Source: a virus. From it: DNA of 64,000 nucleotides. Position 1 is the stretch's first letter. Each line of letters begins with the position of its first letter. The translations under genes were made by a program, and so were the position numbers. The notes below the pieces were generated by a model. That model ran no database searches. It was not told the DNA's origin and saw only the letters and a program-made list of their open reading frames with translations. This document shows, piece after piece, positions 26,772 to 64,000 of this stretch. Where the stretch lies: IMG/VR virus record IMGVR_UViG_3300015371_000002, positions 60,251 to 124,250 of that record. One strand, 5' to 3'.

Positions 26772-27542
<771 letters not shown>

Positions 27543-52304: not shown

Positions 52305-53095
52305 CACGGGCACCACGACGGCACGGGCTGGCGATACGGCGACGCCGGCCGCGCGGGAGGTTTATCTTGCTCGCTGCGTTGGTCACGATAACGGACGTAA
52401 TTCAGACACCAAGTGCGCCAGGAAGCTCCCCAGTCTGCGCTGTCGGTTCCGTTGGCCTGATGGTAGGCCACGAAGCGCGCTATTTCTGCGAGCGGGACGC
52501 CCCGTTCGGTGGCGAAGGCGCTTGCCTTTCCGTCCGCGGACCAGTCCTCCGGGATCGTCGTTCTGCTGCGTGGCTTCGGAGTAGCCTTTTGGCGCTTCGG
52601 TTTCCCGCGCGCGCGATAAGACTCCAAACTATGAATATTAGATTCTGGTTCTTTCCTTGGTTCATTGGATAGATTCCCTCCCTGATTTGGGAGGGGGGGG
52701 GATCCATTTTTGGTAGCCCCCCCTTCCGTATTTGGTATCCCCACCTCTTCCGTTTTTGGTATCCCCTCCCCTTCCATATTCGGTAGGGGGACCCCTTCCG
52801 CATTTGGTAGGGGGGTATCTCCGATTTTGAGACGATACTCAGCGCTGAGGTGGGGCTTGCTGGCATCATCGCCAGGCCGCAGACACCGCTCGGTGAGACC
52901 TGAAGCGCAGAGAGCCGAGAGGGCCTTGCGGACCGTCTTTGGATTGAGATGCGTTCGGCGGCAGATTGTCTGGATAGAGGGGAAGGCGCGTTCGCCCTCT
53001 TTATTGGCATACCAAGCAAGACAGACTAACACCAGCTTGGCGGCACTCGTGGGGCATTCCTGCTCCCACGCCCAAGACTGTGCGCTGAAGCTCAT
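52304..53095 (-). CDS. Replication initiator with internal iterons
   Basis: 263 residues. N-terminal winged helix of the HTH_36 type (CPTSAAKLVLVCLAWYANKE, FPSIQTICRRTHLNPKTVRK). The middle is a series of 8-residue repeats (PLPNAEGV, PLPNMEGE, GIPKTEEV, GIPNTEGG) encoded by 24-bp DNA repeats. The C-terminal third (ERGVPLAEIARFVAYHQANG...WRTWCLNYV) resembles helicase-loading domains. Layout strongly matches phage initiators such as lambda O, with the origin inside the gene and the helicase next. Confidence 0.8.
   Translation of the reverse strand: MSFSAQSWAWEQECPTSAAKLVLVCLAWYANKEGERAFPSIQTICRRTHLNPKTVRKALSALCASGLTERCLRPGDDASKPHLSAEYRLKIGDTPLPNAEGVPLPNMEGEGIPKTEEVGIPNTEGGATKNGSPPLPNQGGNLSNEPRKEPESNIHSLESYRARGKPKRQKATPKPRSRTTIPEDWSADGKASAFATERGVPLAEIARFVAYHQANGTDSADWGASWRTWCLNYVRYRDQRSEQDKPPARPASPYRQPVPSWCP
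52702..52831. repeat. 24-bp iterons, predicted replication origin
   Basis: TTCC units begin at 52724, 52748, 52772 and 52796, exactly 24 bases apart, with consensus TTCCGTATTTGGTA followed by a C- or G-run; partial units begin at 52702 and 52819. An A+T-rich stretch (52621-52680) flanks them. Iterons in an initiator gene followed by an AT-rich region is the classic lambdoid origin arrangement. Confidence 0.85.
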
Positions 53096-55281: not shown

Positions 55282-56247
55282 ATGGTTCAGTTCACTATTG
55301 ATCTGGCCTCAACGTCATCGGCTGCCTTCGGCAACCTCATCGAGCAGTTCGAGAAATGGAAGCAGGACTCTCCGCCTGCACCGTTTGGCCTGACGACGGG
55401 TATCCATACGATTACCCCTGAGCAGGCCGAGGAGCTGCTGAAGCGCAATCGGAAGAACCGTTCAGTTGATATGAGGACGGTTCAAAACTATGCCGTCCAA
55501 CTGATGCGGCAAGAGTGGAAGATTACTGGACAGCCCGTGATCTTTACTGAGCAGGGCAACCTCTTGGACGGGCAGCACCGTTTGTGGGCTTGCTATCTGA
55601 GCGGAGTGCCGATCACCACATATGTGGTAACCGGCATCCCCGATCAGGATAACCTGTTCGCCTACGTCGACAATTGTCGGCCACGCTCGGCCGGCGATGC
55701 TTTGCAGACTGCTGGGTTGAATGGCCTCGCCAAGCACGTGGCGGCAGTCATTCAGGAGTTCGCTCATCGCTATGATGAAGGAGCGCTCGGCGTATCTGGC
55801 CGTGTCTTCGGTATGACGTTGTCCAACCGCGAAGTGCTTGGTTACATGCAGGACCATCCTGACCTGATGGATGTCGCCCGCTATGTAGACAAGATGCACA
55901 AGCAGGCGAAGGCCAAGTTGGGCGCCTCGATCACTACGTTCCTGGCATGGAAGATCGAACAGCTCTATGGCCGGGAGACTGTCGATGAGTTCTTTCACTC
56001 ACTCATCGCAGTTGATTTGCCTAACGACCATCCGGTCACGATGCTGCGCAAGTATATCGAACCGCCGACCCTGACGCCGAAACAGCGGCAGGCAGGCATT
56101 ACCGCGAAGCAACCTCCGGCAAAGACCCGGCTGGCCATGGCCATCGCTGCCTTTAATGCGGTGCAGTCTGGTCAGCGCCTTAAGAAGCTGCAGATCGACC
56201 CGATGAATTCTTACGTCATCAATGAGCCGGTTGCGCAGGCAGCCTAA
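55282..56247 (+). CDS. ParB-like protein B
   Basis: 321 residues. ITPEQAEELLKRNRKNRSVD, NLLDGQHRLWACYLSGVPI (93-111), RPRSAGDAL: a ParB/Srx-fold phage protein family. AGGAG upstream. Likely DNA-binding regulator; no enzyme role assigned. Confidence 0.75.
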   Translation: MVQFTIDLASTSSAAFGNLIEQFEKWKQDSPPAPFGLTTGIHTITPEQAEELLKRNRKNRSVDMRTVQNYAVQLMRQEWKITGQPVIFTEQGNLLDGQHRLWACYLSGVPITTYVVTGIPDQDNLFAYVDNCRPRSAGDALQTAGLNGLAKHVAAVIQEFAHRYDEGALGVSGRVFGMTLSNREVLGYMQDHPDLMDVARYVDKMHKQAKAKLGASITTFLAWKIEQLYGRETVDEFFHSLIAVDLPNDHPVTMLRKYIEPPTLTPKQRQAGITAKQPPAKTRLAMAIAAFNAVQSGQRLKKLQIDPMNSYVINEPVAQAA

Positions 56248-56296
56248 CGGATGGGGGCGGCGGAGACGCCGCCCTTCATTCTCTGGAGCACGTGTC

Positions 56297-57322
56297 ATGA
56301 GATACGAACTACACCCGGCCTGCGCTGCGTTCCCGCCGATGTCTGATAAGGAACTGAGGAAGCTTGCCGAGGACATTAGATTCAATGGTCTGATGGAGCC
56401 CATCACACTGCTTGATGGCAAGGTGCTCGATGGACGCAATCGCATGCTGGCGTGCGAAATGGTGGCCATGGAGCCGGATACCCAGGACTTCAATGAGAAG
56501 TTCCGTGGCTTCGATCCGATCCGGTTCGTGCTGGCGAAGAATGAACGCCGACGGCATCTGCCGGCTAACGAACGCGCGATGATTGCTGAGACGCTGGCCG
56601 CAATAGCTAAGGGCCAGAAAAAGTCAGATAGAGTAATTACTCTATCTGAGGCTCTGACGCAGGAAGAGGCCGCAGAAGAGATGGGCGTAAGCGTGCAGGC
56701 AATCAAAGATGCACGCACAGTTAAGAAGAACGCCGCTCCGAATGTCATCGACATGGTGCGTAAGGGCGATGTCGGTATGCAGGTTGCTGCCCGTGCCGCG
56801 TCAGCCACACCATTGCAAGAACAGGCGAAGTGGAAGTCGCCGAAGGATGTGCGCGCCGCATTCGAAGCACAGCGGCCAACTAACCGGAGACCATCCACGG
56901 ATCAGAAGGCACCAAGGAGAAACACCCGACAAGAGGCATGGGAGCGGAGGATTAATCGCCCTGCATTCCGATCGCTTCCACCGGAAGAAACAGGCAAGCC
57001 GGTGGGCCTAGAGGCGTTAGAACCAGACCCGGATAACCCTACCGTCACCATTGGGTTCTCGCATATTGCCAAACACGGAATGGTGCAAATCCTACCGATC
57101 ACAGAACAGCAGCGCATGGACTTTCGCGCGAAACTCTATGATCTGACGGGCGCAATGAAGGACCTCGCCAACAAGGAGTGTGCGACCGCAGAGGAGTTTG
57201 TGACGCTTCTGACAGAAAAGGAGCGGGCGCCATTCTTACGCCAATGGTCGGACTACATCAGCAAGATCGAGCAAACGATTCAGACATTGAGCGGGCTGAT
57301 TGAACGTGAGAAAGCAGCATAA
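56297..57322 (+). CDS. ParB-like protein C with HTH
   Basis: 341 residues. ParB core KLAEDIRFNGLMEPITLLDG and DGRNRMLACEM (45-55), an HTH (QEEAAEEMGVSVQAIKDAR) near 126-145, and a basic linker before the helical C-terminus. Second of two tandem ParB-like genes. ATG at 56297 with GGAG upstream. Confidence 0.75.
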   Translation: MRYELHPACAAFPPMSDKELRKLAEDIRFNGLMEPITLLDGKVLDGRNRMLACEMVAMEPDTQDFNEKFRGFDPIRFVLAKNERRRHLPANERAMIAETLAAIAKGQKKSDRVITLSEALTQEEAAEEMGVSVQAIKDARTVKKNAAPNVIDMVRKGDVGMQVAARAASATPLQEQAKWKSPKDVRAAFEAQRPTNRRPSTDQKAPRRNTRQEAWERRINRPAFRSLPPEETGKPVGLEALEPDPDNPTVTIGFSHIAKHGMVQILPITEQQRMDFRAKLYDLTGAMKDLANKECATAEEFVTLLTEKERAPFLRQWSDYISKIEQTIQTLSGLIEREKAA

Positions 57323-58604: not shown

Positions 58605-58860
58605 TCCCACCACCTCCGCCGTTCATTACGTGTCAGTGCGCAACGGAATTGCTCCCTCCTGGAAACAGCGTTGCACGCCGCGTCGAAAGTGTTGACGCAA
58701 TTCGTCGATATATGGATGACTATATACTGTGCTGCCACACAGCATGACGCGTCGATGCGTTACCGTCCCATATGGTCTCTCTCAGGGTCGGTGATCTGCC
58801 TCGCGCGTCCCCTGTTTAATGCTCCGGGCTCGTGGGCCGGAACTTGAGGGAGAACGTCGC
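58605..58860 (+). other. Intergenic region with likely promoter
   Basis: 256 bases. TTGACG near 58693 and AT-rich TATATGG/TATATAC near 58711 and 58724 suggest promoter boxes, but spacings are not ideal. No gene seen. Confidence 0.3.
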
Positions 58861-59721
58861 ATGGCAACGCGTCCTATTCGCCGTAATCAGCGCAAGCCGA
58901 ACCGTCCATCGCCCGACCGCCAAGAGCCAGAAGATGAAGTGCCAGTCACGCCAGAAATCGAAGAAGAGGCTCCGCTCGCACCAGCTTCGCTGACAGCGCT
59001 GCTGTCCACCGCTCCGGTCTATACTCAATTCGACATTTGGTTGGTGGGTGACACGCCGCTGATCTGCCACGCGTGGTCGCTCAAGGCGCGGCTAGAGATG
59101 CTTGCGACCCAGACCAAGGCCGTGCGAGACACCAAAGTTGCGCGTGATCCGCAGGCCGATTTCATCAGCTCGCTATACGAGATGTCGGAAGGCAGTGGAG
59201 AATACGGCTTTCCGCTGACCGGGATTAAGAACTGCATTCTGTCGATGGCGCATAAGGATCGCGGTGTTCCGCGAACCACAGTGCGTGCGTCACTGCAATT
59301 GCGCGGGAACATCGTTCGGGTGCGGCCAGCGTTAGCAGGTGCGATATGCGATATGCCGCTTTGCCGGATCTACGGCGGGAAGCCAGAGATGCGCGAGGAT
59401 ATGGTGCGGGTAGGAGCGGGGCTTCGTAAGAAAGCGACCCTTGCCTATCGTGCCCAATTTTGGCCCTGGGCTATCCGCATCGCGGGGCGGGTCAATACGC
59501 GGATGCTGCCCAGCGAGGCGTTGGTCTTTCTCGCTAGGGAAGGCGGCAGCGCTACTGGCATCGGCGAATGGCGCAACGAGAGGGATGGCATCTTTGGTGC
59601 CTTCCACCCGGCTCGCGTAAACGAGGCAGACGCATGGGGGAAATTTGCCAGTGGCAAGGGGCCGTTGCCACACGTCGAACCCTGGGTTGGGCTGGATTCT
59701 GACGAGAGCGAGGCGGCGTAA
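58861..59721 (+). CDS. Conserved phage protein (CHAWS family)
   Basis: 286 residues. IWLVGDTPLICHAWSLKARL, DFISSLYEMSEGSGEYGFPL, MREDMVRVGAGLRKKATLAY and the C-terminal ATGIGEWRNERDGIFGAFHP form a set recurring in many phages, usually close to recT or other recombination genes. Function unknown; a role with single-strand annealing proteins is suggested by neighbourhood only. GAGGGAG before the ATG. Confidence 0.7.
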   Translation: MATRPIRRNQRKPNRPSPDRQEPEDEVPVTPEIEEEAPLAPASLTALLSTAPVYTQFDIWLVGDTPLICHAWSLKARLEMLATQTKAVRDTKVARDPQADFISSLYEMSEGSGEYGFPLTGIKNCILSMAHKDRGVPRTTVRASLQLRGNIVRVRPALAGAICDMPLCRIYGGKPEMREDMVRVGAGLRKKATLAYRAQFWPWAIRIAGRVNTRMLPSEALVFLAREGGSATGIGEWRNERDGIFGAFHPARVNEADAWGKFASGKGPLPHVEPWVGLDSDESEAA

Positions 59722-60225
59722 ATGGCAGAACAGTGGACGGTTCATCAAAATAGCGCACTGCGCAATGTCAAAAATCGCACTCAGCTTGACCCATCGCGCG
59801 TCGGTCCGGAACTGCAGCGGCACCCGACCAACGAAACGGCGCTGGAGGCAGCAAAATCCAACCGCAATCCGCTCCATCGGCATTTGGAGTGGGATGACGC
59901 TGTCTGTGGCGTCGCGCATCGTCTCGGACAGATCGCCGCGCTGCGATCATGCATCCGTCTATACGATGAGGAAACCGATGAGGTTCATCGCGCCTTCATC
60001 TCGTTGACTGACGATGAAGATCGCCACCGGGCGCGATATTACAGCCGCCAGCAGGTTCTCGACTCGATCGAGATTCAACGGCAGGTGCTACGAAAATGGA
60101 TCACCCGCTTCGAAGCGATTCAATCGGATCTGTCCGAAATGGAAGACCTGTGCCAAGCGGCGAAGGACTTTGGCCAACGACTAAGGGATCGGCTGCAATC
60201 GTTTGAAGCACGCCCATCGGAATGA
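59722..60225 (+). CDS. Conserved phage protein (HLEWDDA type)
   Basis: 167 residues. NPLHRHLEWDDAVCGVAHRL is a signature of an uncharacterised family that follows CHAWS-type genes. Remainder is helical. Starts directly after the previous stop. Confidence 0.65.
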   Translation: MAEQWTVHQNSALRNVKNRTQLDPSRVGPELQRHPTNETALEAAKSNRNPLHRHLEWDDAVCGVAHRLGQIAALRSCIRLYDEETDEVHRAFISLTDDEDRHRARYYSRQQVLDSIEIQRQVLRKWITRFEAIQSDLSEMEDLCQAAKDFGQRLRDRLQSFEARPSE

Positions 60226-60249
60226 TGGCAAGAAAAACCAACAAGATTT

Positions 60250-61135
60250 TTGGCGGGGGGCGGCTCTGCTCTCCCTGGCTTGGCGGGGCGCGACCCGTCT
60301 CGGCCGGCTTGTCCGGGAATGGCGCGTCAGAGGCTGGGCACGGCTCAGCACTGCTGTGCCAGGCAGGCACGGCGCGGCTCGGCGGGTCCCTGCAAAACAT
60401 GGCCTCTCTCAGCGTGGCGGGGCAGGTCTCGGCAGGCATGGCGCGGCATGGATTGCGTGGCTTGGCCCTGCAGTGCCCGGAATTGCTCGTCTTTGCACGG
60501 CCGACATGGCTAGGCTGGGCCGAGCATGGCTGGGCTGGCCCCGGCGTGGCTCGTCTCGGTGTGCAAGGCAGGCACGGCTCGGCGGTGCGGGACCCGTCTC
60601 GGCAATGCCAGGCAGGGCCGGGCTCGTCATACCAAGGCAGGCGCGGCGCGGCCAGGCTAGGATGGCGGTGCTCAGCATTGCTCGGCATGGCCCGGCATGG
60701 CTTGGCAGGCAGGCTCGGCAAGTCTCAGCGTGCCTCGGCCTGGCATGGCGCACGGCATTGCTCAGCTGGTCTTGGCAGGCATGTCAGGTATCGGCAAGTC
60801 CGGGCAAGGCACGTCACAGCGTGGCTTGGCAGGCAGAGCGCGGCTCGGCGCAACGTAGCTTGGCCCGCCATGGCAGGTCTCTGGCATGGCGTGGCGGGTC
60901 GAGGCAGGCACGGCGGGTCCAGGCAAATTCTGGCCAGGCTGAGCTCGGCCCGGCGGTGCACGACGTGGCAAGGCCGGAAAGGTTCGGCACGGCATGGAGT
61001 GGCTTGTCTGGGCACGTCATTACTGGGCGTCGCTGGGCATGACTTGGCAGGCACGGCTAGGCCTGTCACGGCAAGACTCAGCAAGGCCAGGCATGGCGAA
61101 GCGTGTCCCGGCTCGGGGCGGTTGGCAGCAATAGT
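60250..61135 (+). repeat. Degenerate GGCNN pentanucleotide tract (~0.9 kb)
   Basis: About 880 bases in which GGC recurs mostly every 5 bases (units GGCAT, GGCTT, GGCAG, GGCAC, GGCTC), the plus strand being G-rich. Frames on both strands stay open for 100-330 codons because stops are rare in such sequence; their products are only HG-AR-W repeats. It lies in a convergent gap between the 59722 and 61161 genes. Confidence 0.85.
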
Positions 61136-61160
61136 TGCCAGCCGCCTCTGCTGTCATAAT

Positions 61161-61442
61161 TCAGTCCAGGTGATACACCCGACTGGCATCGTCCGCCGCG
61201 CGGTCCTTCATTAGCTCGATGCGCAGTTTGTCGCGATCGAACGGTGGCGCGTATTGGGCGATGGCGTCGATCAGTGGGTCTGGATTGTAGCGGAACTCGT
61301 TGGGCGAACTGCCGAGTGACAGCACCGGCCCTGCATCACCGTGCCTTTCCAATTCGACGACGCAGAAGAAAGTGCGCAGTGGCGGATCCCAGCCGATGAC
61401 CATGTAGTCGCCGCCATCAGGCTCGAGGTGGCATTTGCTCAT
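61161..61442 (-). CDS. Hypothetical protein (93 aa)
   Basis: Begins MSKCHLEPDGGDYMVIGWDP; ends ADDASRVYHLD. ATGA overlap with the RuvC-like gene. Unknown family. Confidence 0.6.
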   Translation of the reverse strand: MSKCHLEPDGGDYMVIGWDPPLRTFFCVVELERHGDAGPVLSLGSSPNEFRYNPDPLIDAIAQYAPPFDRDKLRIELMKDRAADDASRVYHLD

Positions 61443-61978
61443 GCTAAATCCCATCGGAACAACGGCTGCTTCGCCGACGGAATGCCGAGGATCTTCTGCC
61501 GGTAATCGTGCCAACAGATGATGGCATCCGCAGCGTTATGGTCGGTTACGTCAAGTTTCAGTTCCTGGCGGCAGAACTGCACCACGGCGGTCTTCGTCTC
61601 ACCCTTAACCCAACGGCAGCGGCCCATGACGTTGGTGCGGATGGTATCAACGTGAGCGCCATGGAACGCCACGTCATGACGGAAGCATGCTTCCCTGACG
61701 AAGCCGACGATGGCGTAGATCTGCATCATGGTGTCGACATTGGTGTTCGGCACGTTGGGCGGCAACGGGTTCTCGATCACCACGTCCGCAGGGTTCCACG
61801 CATCCATCGTGTCGTTGACCTTATCGACGAAAGCAGCGTAACGCGCGCCGACGCCGCCGATCTTCGGTAAGGTCCAGTGGCCGAATTCCGGCTGTTTCCG
61901 CCTGAGCGGTGCATAGGCCCAGCCGATGACGGTAGCGGACAGATCCAGCGCCAGCACACCGCCATCGGGCATGGTCAT
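61439..61978 (-). CDS. RuvC-like Holliday junction resolvase
   Basis: 179 residues. RNase H fold with acidic motifs LALDLSATVIGWA (first Asp), VVIENPLPP (Glu), and DHNAADAIICWHD (last Asp pair). Resolves branched DNA in phage recombination or packaging. ATG at 61978. Confidence 0.85.
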   Translation of the reverse strand: MTMPDGGVLALDLSATVIGWAYAPLRRKQPEFGHWTLPKIGGVGARYAAFVDKVNDTMDAWNPADVVIENPLPPNVPNTNVDTMMQIYAIVGFVREACFRHDVAFHGAHVDTIRTNVMGRCRWVKGETKTAVVQFCRQELKLDVTDHNAADAIICWHDYRQKILGIPSAKQPLFRWDLA

Positions 61979-63487: not shown

Positions 63488-64000
63488 ATGAGCGCAGCAG
63501 CAGCAGCAGAGACTCAGCTCGCGACGATCTCCCAGAAGGACGAAGACCTGCTGATCGAGGCCATGCAGAACAGCCTCTACCCTGGGGCCAAGCGAGAAAG
63601 CGTCGCGCTGGTCCTGAGTTACTGTCGGGTCAACAAGCTCGATCCGATGACCAAGCCGGTGCACATCGTGCGGATGAAGGTAAAGACCGGCTATGACCCA
63701 GTAAAGCGCCAGAACATAGAAGAATGGCGCGATGTGCTGATGCCGGGCATCGGCGATTATCGCATCAAGGCGGCCCGTAGCGGTGAATATGGCGGTAAGA
63801 CGGAACCAGAATTTGGCCCCGTTATCAGAGAGAAGCTGGGCGGCACGGAGGTGTCATATCCACAGTGGTGTAGGATCACGGTGCATCGCATCGTGCAGGG
63901 GCAACCGAGGGCCTTCGCCGCCAAGGAATATTGGCTCGAGAACTACGCCAATGACGGCCACTCGGATAAGCCGAACTATATGTGGAAAAAGCGGGCATTC
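63488..64000 (+). CDS. recT: RecT-type single-strand annealing protein, C-terminus cut by edge
   Basis: 171 residues visible. LYPGAKRESVALVLSYCRVN, LDPMTKPVHIVRMK and ADGHSDKPNYMWKKR fit the RecT/Bet annealing fold (core helix plus beta sheet). Promotes annealing of single strands in phage recombination. AACGAA precedes the ATG. The frame runs off the right edge. Confidence 0.88.
   Translation, partial: MSAAAAAETQLATISQKDEDLLIEAMQNSLYPGAKRESVALVLSYCRVNKLDPMTKPVHIVRMKVKTGYDPVKRQNIEEWRDVLMPGIGDYRIKAARSGEYGGKTEPEFGPVIREKLGGTEVSYPQWCRITVHRIVQGQPRAFAAKEYWLENYANDGHSDKPNYMWKKRAF

What the first reader, a model, noticed from the sequence alone, without database searches (positions are those of the whole stretch)
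60250..61135. 0.9-kb degenerate GGCNN pentanucleotide tract
The strict 5-base rhythm with drifting sequence is neither coding nor a normal tandem repeat. It separates convergent operons. It could block replication forks, form R-loops or G-rich structures, terminate transcription, or act as a recombination or packaging site. Open frames on both strands here are artefacts of the lack of stops.
Basis: seen in the sequence. Interest (0 to 1): 0.8.

Follow-up and report, generated by a model that had tools for sequence, protein, structure and literature searches.

The report
Phage VIPR guide-RNA array
The odd five-base rhythm is a guide-RNA array of the newly described VIPR system, with which phages steer a CRISPR-related protein to the DNA of competing phages; this is a new member of that system, not a structural or recombination element.

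Summary
The tract is real: 177 units at 60252-61124 (158 of 5 nt, 16 of 4 nt), model score 276 against at most 4.8 in 200 shuffles. It is a vrRNA (guide-RNA) array of a VIPR system, described in a 2026 preprint (PMC13142463): vipr 58819-59721, a probable accessory gene 59722-60225, the array, then a strong hairpin at 61115-61148. The vipr family profile matches the solved SUSP1 Vipr protein (E 1.3e-34), and the predicted fold matches CRISPR RAMP proteins (Csm3, Z 11). Of 113 loci with such tracts, 93 carry a Vipr homologue. Of 16 Vipr relatives found by protein alone, 15 have a tract just downstream. Four natural guide-target pairs in relatives obey the 1-nt-skip code, and the matches start at the short 4-nt units (GGCA, or GGCT in a sister clade); three also stop there. 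These units therefore look like guide delimiters, a detail absent from the preprint's main text. No target was found for this phage's own guides, and nothing here shows transcription. VIPR membership is near certain. That it silences competing phages is inferred from the preprint.

The parts
58819..59721 (+). vipr gene (RAMP-fold protein, phrog_4652); conserved domain about residues 65-268, N-terminal ~60 residues predicted disordered
   Evidence: profile A1 hits PDB 36pp SUSP1 Vipr E 1.3e-34; AF2 pLDDT 81; Foldseek and VIA-align top rows all CRISPR RAMPs
59722..60225 (+). probable vipr-accessory (vap) gene, phrog_15946
   Evidence: directly after vipr; same family precedes tracts in 31 loci; AF2 pLDDT 92.5, no clear fold match
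60252..61124 (+). vrRNA (guide) array: 177 GGC-NN type units in about 13 blocks
60362..60365 (+). first GGCA delimiter; others start at 60431, 60567, 60636, 60704, 60708, 60774, 60828, 60903, 61046 (plus GAAA at 60977)
   Evidence: parse; role inferred from the four guide-target pairs in relatives
61115..61148 (+). 15-bp hairpin with AAUA loop ending the array (tail or terminator), before the stop of the convergent gene at 61161
   Evidence: strand folding of 61095-61165, z -5.3; hairpins also follow relatives' arrays

Best explanation
The tract is the guide-RNA array of a phage VIPR system. The transcript carries blocks of about 10-15 pentamers. The GGC-type triplets are held by Vipr subunits and the two variable bases of each unit pair with target DNA, skipping one target base between pairs. 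Each block between two 4-nt units (GGCA here) is one guide. The Vipr-RNA complex then binds and represses competing phages or prophages. Shown here: gene content, fold, array architecture, and the decoding rule plus block boundaries in relatives. Inferred: that this array is transcribed, processed and used against competitors.
For: Vipr homology and RAMP fold. Tract-Vipr association in both directions: 93/113 tract loci carry Vipr, 15/16 Vipr relatives found by protein carry a tract. The GG[C]-NN architecture matches GGY/NN of PMC13142463. Natural guide-target pairs with a 1-nt skip: an L159 (Mycobacterium szulgai) guide matches the vipr gene of Cheoctovirus phages (L006, L007, L008) and of L094 at 20/20 positions; L202 to L200 at 21/22 with the skipped base at the codon wobble; L179 to L197 and L152 to L016 at 17/18. 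About 0.003 exact matches of 20 are expected by chance in that search (my arithmetic). At 0 or 1 mismatch the counts are 15 for skip 1, none for skip 0 or 2, and 1 for reversed guides. In all four pairs the match starts right after a 4-nt unit; in three it ends at the last unit before the next. The window's own NN bases fit antisense codon positions 1-2 best of seven models (r 0.68).
Against: No target found for any window guide: five were scanned in IMG/VR with exact patterns (extensions checked) and all blocks against 6.5 Mb of local sequence, both strands. No transcript data. The scaffold triplet is looser than in SUSP1-type vrRNAs, so some units may have decayed. One Vipr relative (L205, partial gene) has no array. 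The sense/antisense composition test rests on 158 dinucleotides.
Confidence: 0.94

Rival explanations
1. Protein-coding repeat: the + frame 60222-61214 encodes a low-complexity Gly/Ala/Arg protein.
For: 330-codon open frame starting at the vap stop.
Against: Pentamer structure allows few stops by itself; 4-nt units shift the frame; arrays of relatives have stops in all six frames in L195-L198 and L201; no family match.
Confidence: 0.02
2. Structural DNA/RNA element (G-quadruplex, R-loop, replication-fork block, recombination or packaging site).
For: G-rich strand; GG every 5 nt could form two-tetrad quadruplexes (inference only, not computed).
Against: Does not explain the conserved third base C, the Vipr gene next door, the regularly spaced 4-nt delimiters, or the gapped matches to other phage genes.
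Confidence: 0.02
3. A decayed VIPR array: guides no longer functional because the GGC scaffold has eroded.
For: Only 99 of 177 units are exact GGC; no targets found.
Against: Relatives with about 50-62% identical Vipr show looser or similar triplets yet keep delimiters, block lengths and the final hairpin; vipr and vap frames are intact.
Confidence: 0.12

Closest known systems
VIPR (Viral Interference Programmable Repeat), PMC13142463
   Same: phage-encoded Vipr RAMP protein, small accessory gene, RNA of alternating GGY and NN, 9-16 repeats per guide, 1-nt-skip code, structured 3' end
   Different: guides run together without a structured tail per guide, delimited by a single-base slip (GGCA or GGCT); scaffold triplet looser; the preprint's 'staggered arrays' (its fig. 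S18, not readable here) may be this architecture; type I-VII not assignable here
CRISPR class 1 RAMP proteins (Csm3/Cas7)
   Same: fold of the Vipr protein
   Different: no CRISPR repeats at the locus; 5-nt period and gapped pairing
TRAP-bound (G/U)AG-NN RNA repeats
   Same: triplets spaced by two free bases
   Different: recalled from general knowledge, a lead not a test; triplet and length differ

Membership tests
VIPR | Vipr protein with RAMP fold | tested here: met
VIPR | RNA of alternating GGY/NN tandem repeats next to vipr | tested here: met
   triplet looser than GGY (80/78/93%)
VIPR | vap gene in the locus | tested here: inconclusive
   phrog_15946 gene adjacent and recurrent, but not matched to a named vap
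VIPR | 9-16 repeats per guide | tested here: met
   blocks median 12 units in the window
VIPR | 1-nt-skip target recognition | tested here: inconclusive
   met for four guide-target pairs in relatives; no target found for the window's own guides
VIPR | structured 3' tail on the vrRNA | tested here: inconclusive
   one hairpin at the array end, no tail per guide
VIPR | transcribed and bound by Vipr | not testable with these tools
   needs RNA data
CRISPR-Cas | identical repeats with spacers | tested here: not met
   no direct-repeat array at the locus; no PADLOC model matches vipr or vap

The most novel reading that the evidence does not exclude
This clade is a distinct VIPR variant in which guides are packed head to tail and separated only by a one-base slip (A or T, fixed per clade), with a relaxed scaffold triplet, and in which guides mostly match the antisense strand of target genes.
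Probability: 0.35. Interest if true: 0.6.

Novelty: new member of a known kind. Interest (0 to 1): 0.5.

Why it matters
It shows that a strange tract called noncoding by eye is a readable RNA-guided targeting array. It also supplies independent, sequence-only support for the VIPR gapped code in mycobacterial and soil phages, plus a rule for where one guide ends and the next begins, which makes natural targets searchable.

Tried and rejected
Search for relatives through the RuvC-like neighbour: none confirmed. Exact-pattern scans of IMG/VR for five window guides: zero hits for two; for the other three only 8-unit hits that do not extend convincingly. One of these guides matches the conserved TASGP motif of phage ribonucleotide reductases over 8 units but fails beyond, so I do not claim it as a target. 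Host lineage: Vipr is rare in 289 genomes of the Sphingomonas class (3 hits); no plasmid match. Rfam on the window and eight related loci: no hammerhead or other match except one tRNA in L159. Fold of the accessory protein: only weak MarR-like rows. Twenty exact 'skip 3' matches most likely come from array copies left unmasked, since skip 3 is the array's own spacing (inference, not checked row by row).

Full report
The observation. The tract is there and is far from chance. A unit parser finds 177 units from 60252 to 61124, of which 158 are 5 nt and 16 are 4 nt. The score is 276 against a maximum of 4.8 in 200 dinucleotide shuffles, and no other 900-nt tile of the window exceeds 1.6. The triplet is 80% G, 78% G, 93% C; 99 units are exactly GGC.

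What led to the answer. blastn found similar tracts in Cheoctovirus mycobacteriophages. Across these, the 4-nt unit is almost always GGCA (213 of 245). The G-rich strand is usually the coding strand of the gene just upstream, often with a gap of a few bases. Two protein families dominate the upstream genes: A (phrog_4652) and B (phrog_15946). In the window they are the two genes directly before the tract.

Family A is Vipr. A profile of 37 members hits PDB 36pp, the SUSP1 Vipr protein, at 1.3e-34; the window protein alone is only a weak hit (E 0.022). The AF2 model matches Csm3 and other CRISPR RAMPs (Foldseek best E 5.8e-5; VIA-align Z 11.0, 154 residues, rmsd 3.8). The preprint PMC13142463 describes VIPR: Vipr plus vrRNAs of alternating GGY and NN that recognise DNA with a 1-nt skip. 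Vipr homologues are present in 93 of 113 tract loci, including the Cheoctovirus phages. Conversely, of 16 Vipr relatives found by protein only, 15 have a tract shortly downstream; L205 does not. Several of these 16 are near-identical copies (L206-L210), so the count of independent cases is smaller.

Architecture. In the window and relatives the arrays fall into blocks of about 10-15 pentamers ending in a 4-nt unit. The extra base is mostly A in the window (11 of 16) and in L195-L198 (30 of 36), and T in L199-L203 (48 of 50). Other clades use longer constant separators (GGCACCGCA, GGCGTTCAG, GGCTACCTCAG, GGCGAGGAACGC). Arrays end in hairpins; the window's is 61115-61148, z -5.3.

Decoding. I searched blocks from all arrays against a pool of 4.7 million positions (both strands) with skips of 0-3 and reversed guides. 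At 0 or 1 mismatch: 15 hits for skip 1, none for skip 0 or 2, 1 for reversed. Some of the 15 are the same target in overlapping or related loci. Four pairs stand out. An L159 guide matches the vipr gene of Cheoctovirus phages (L006, L007, L008) and of L094 at 20/20; its best match in its own locus is 14/20. An L202 guide matches L200 at 21/22, with the skipped base at the wobble position, in a gene that lies just after the array in related phages. L179 to vipr in L197 and L152 to an AAA_24 ATPase gene in L016 are 17/18; these two, at 9 units, are weaker evidence. All four matches begin right after a 4-nt unit; three end at the next one, and the L159 match ends inside its block. My search windows never crossed a 4-nt unit, so the test of the boundary is that the flanking units do not match. 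My pool is made largely of VIPR neighbourhoods, so the prevalence of VIPR-gene targets here is biased.

The window's own guides. No target was found. Their NN composition fits the reverse complement of codon positions 1-2 better than the six other models tried (r 0.68, 158 units), whereas the bulk of other arrays fit the sense strand best. This suggests guides that match the antisense strand of genes, but it is indirect.

Verdict. New member of VIPR. The one-base delimiter and loose triplet may be a variant, or may already be in the preprint's supplement, which I could not read.

Noticed in passing
L159:3632-3681 and L006:3234-3263: A guide in a Mycobacterium szulgai locus matches the vipr gene of Cheoctovirus mycobacteriophages at 20 of 20 positions: one VIPR aimed at another.
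   Followed up: yes
L124, L098, L017, L040 arrays: Other tract clades have clade-specific constant separators (GGAACG, TACCTCAG, GTTCAG, ACCGCA) between blocks of GGCNN units.
   Followed up: partly
window 52703-52814: Short 24/48-bp tandem repeat with runs of C and TTCGGTA.
   Followed up: no
window 27465-27514: Perfect GCCGTT hexamer repeated 8.3 times inside an open frame.
   Followed up: no
window 56222-57322: ParB-like gene upstream of vipr (phrog_21315, phrog_4715); ParB-like genes also appear next to other tracts (L057, L138).
   Followed up: partly
window 63488-64000: RecT-like single-strand annealing protein, about 54% identical to Klebsiella prophage proteins, near a RuvC-like resolvase at 61439-61978.
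   Followed up: no
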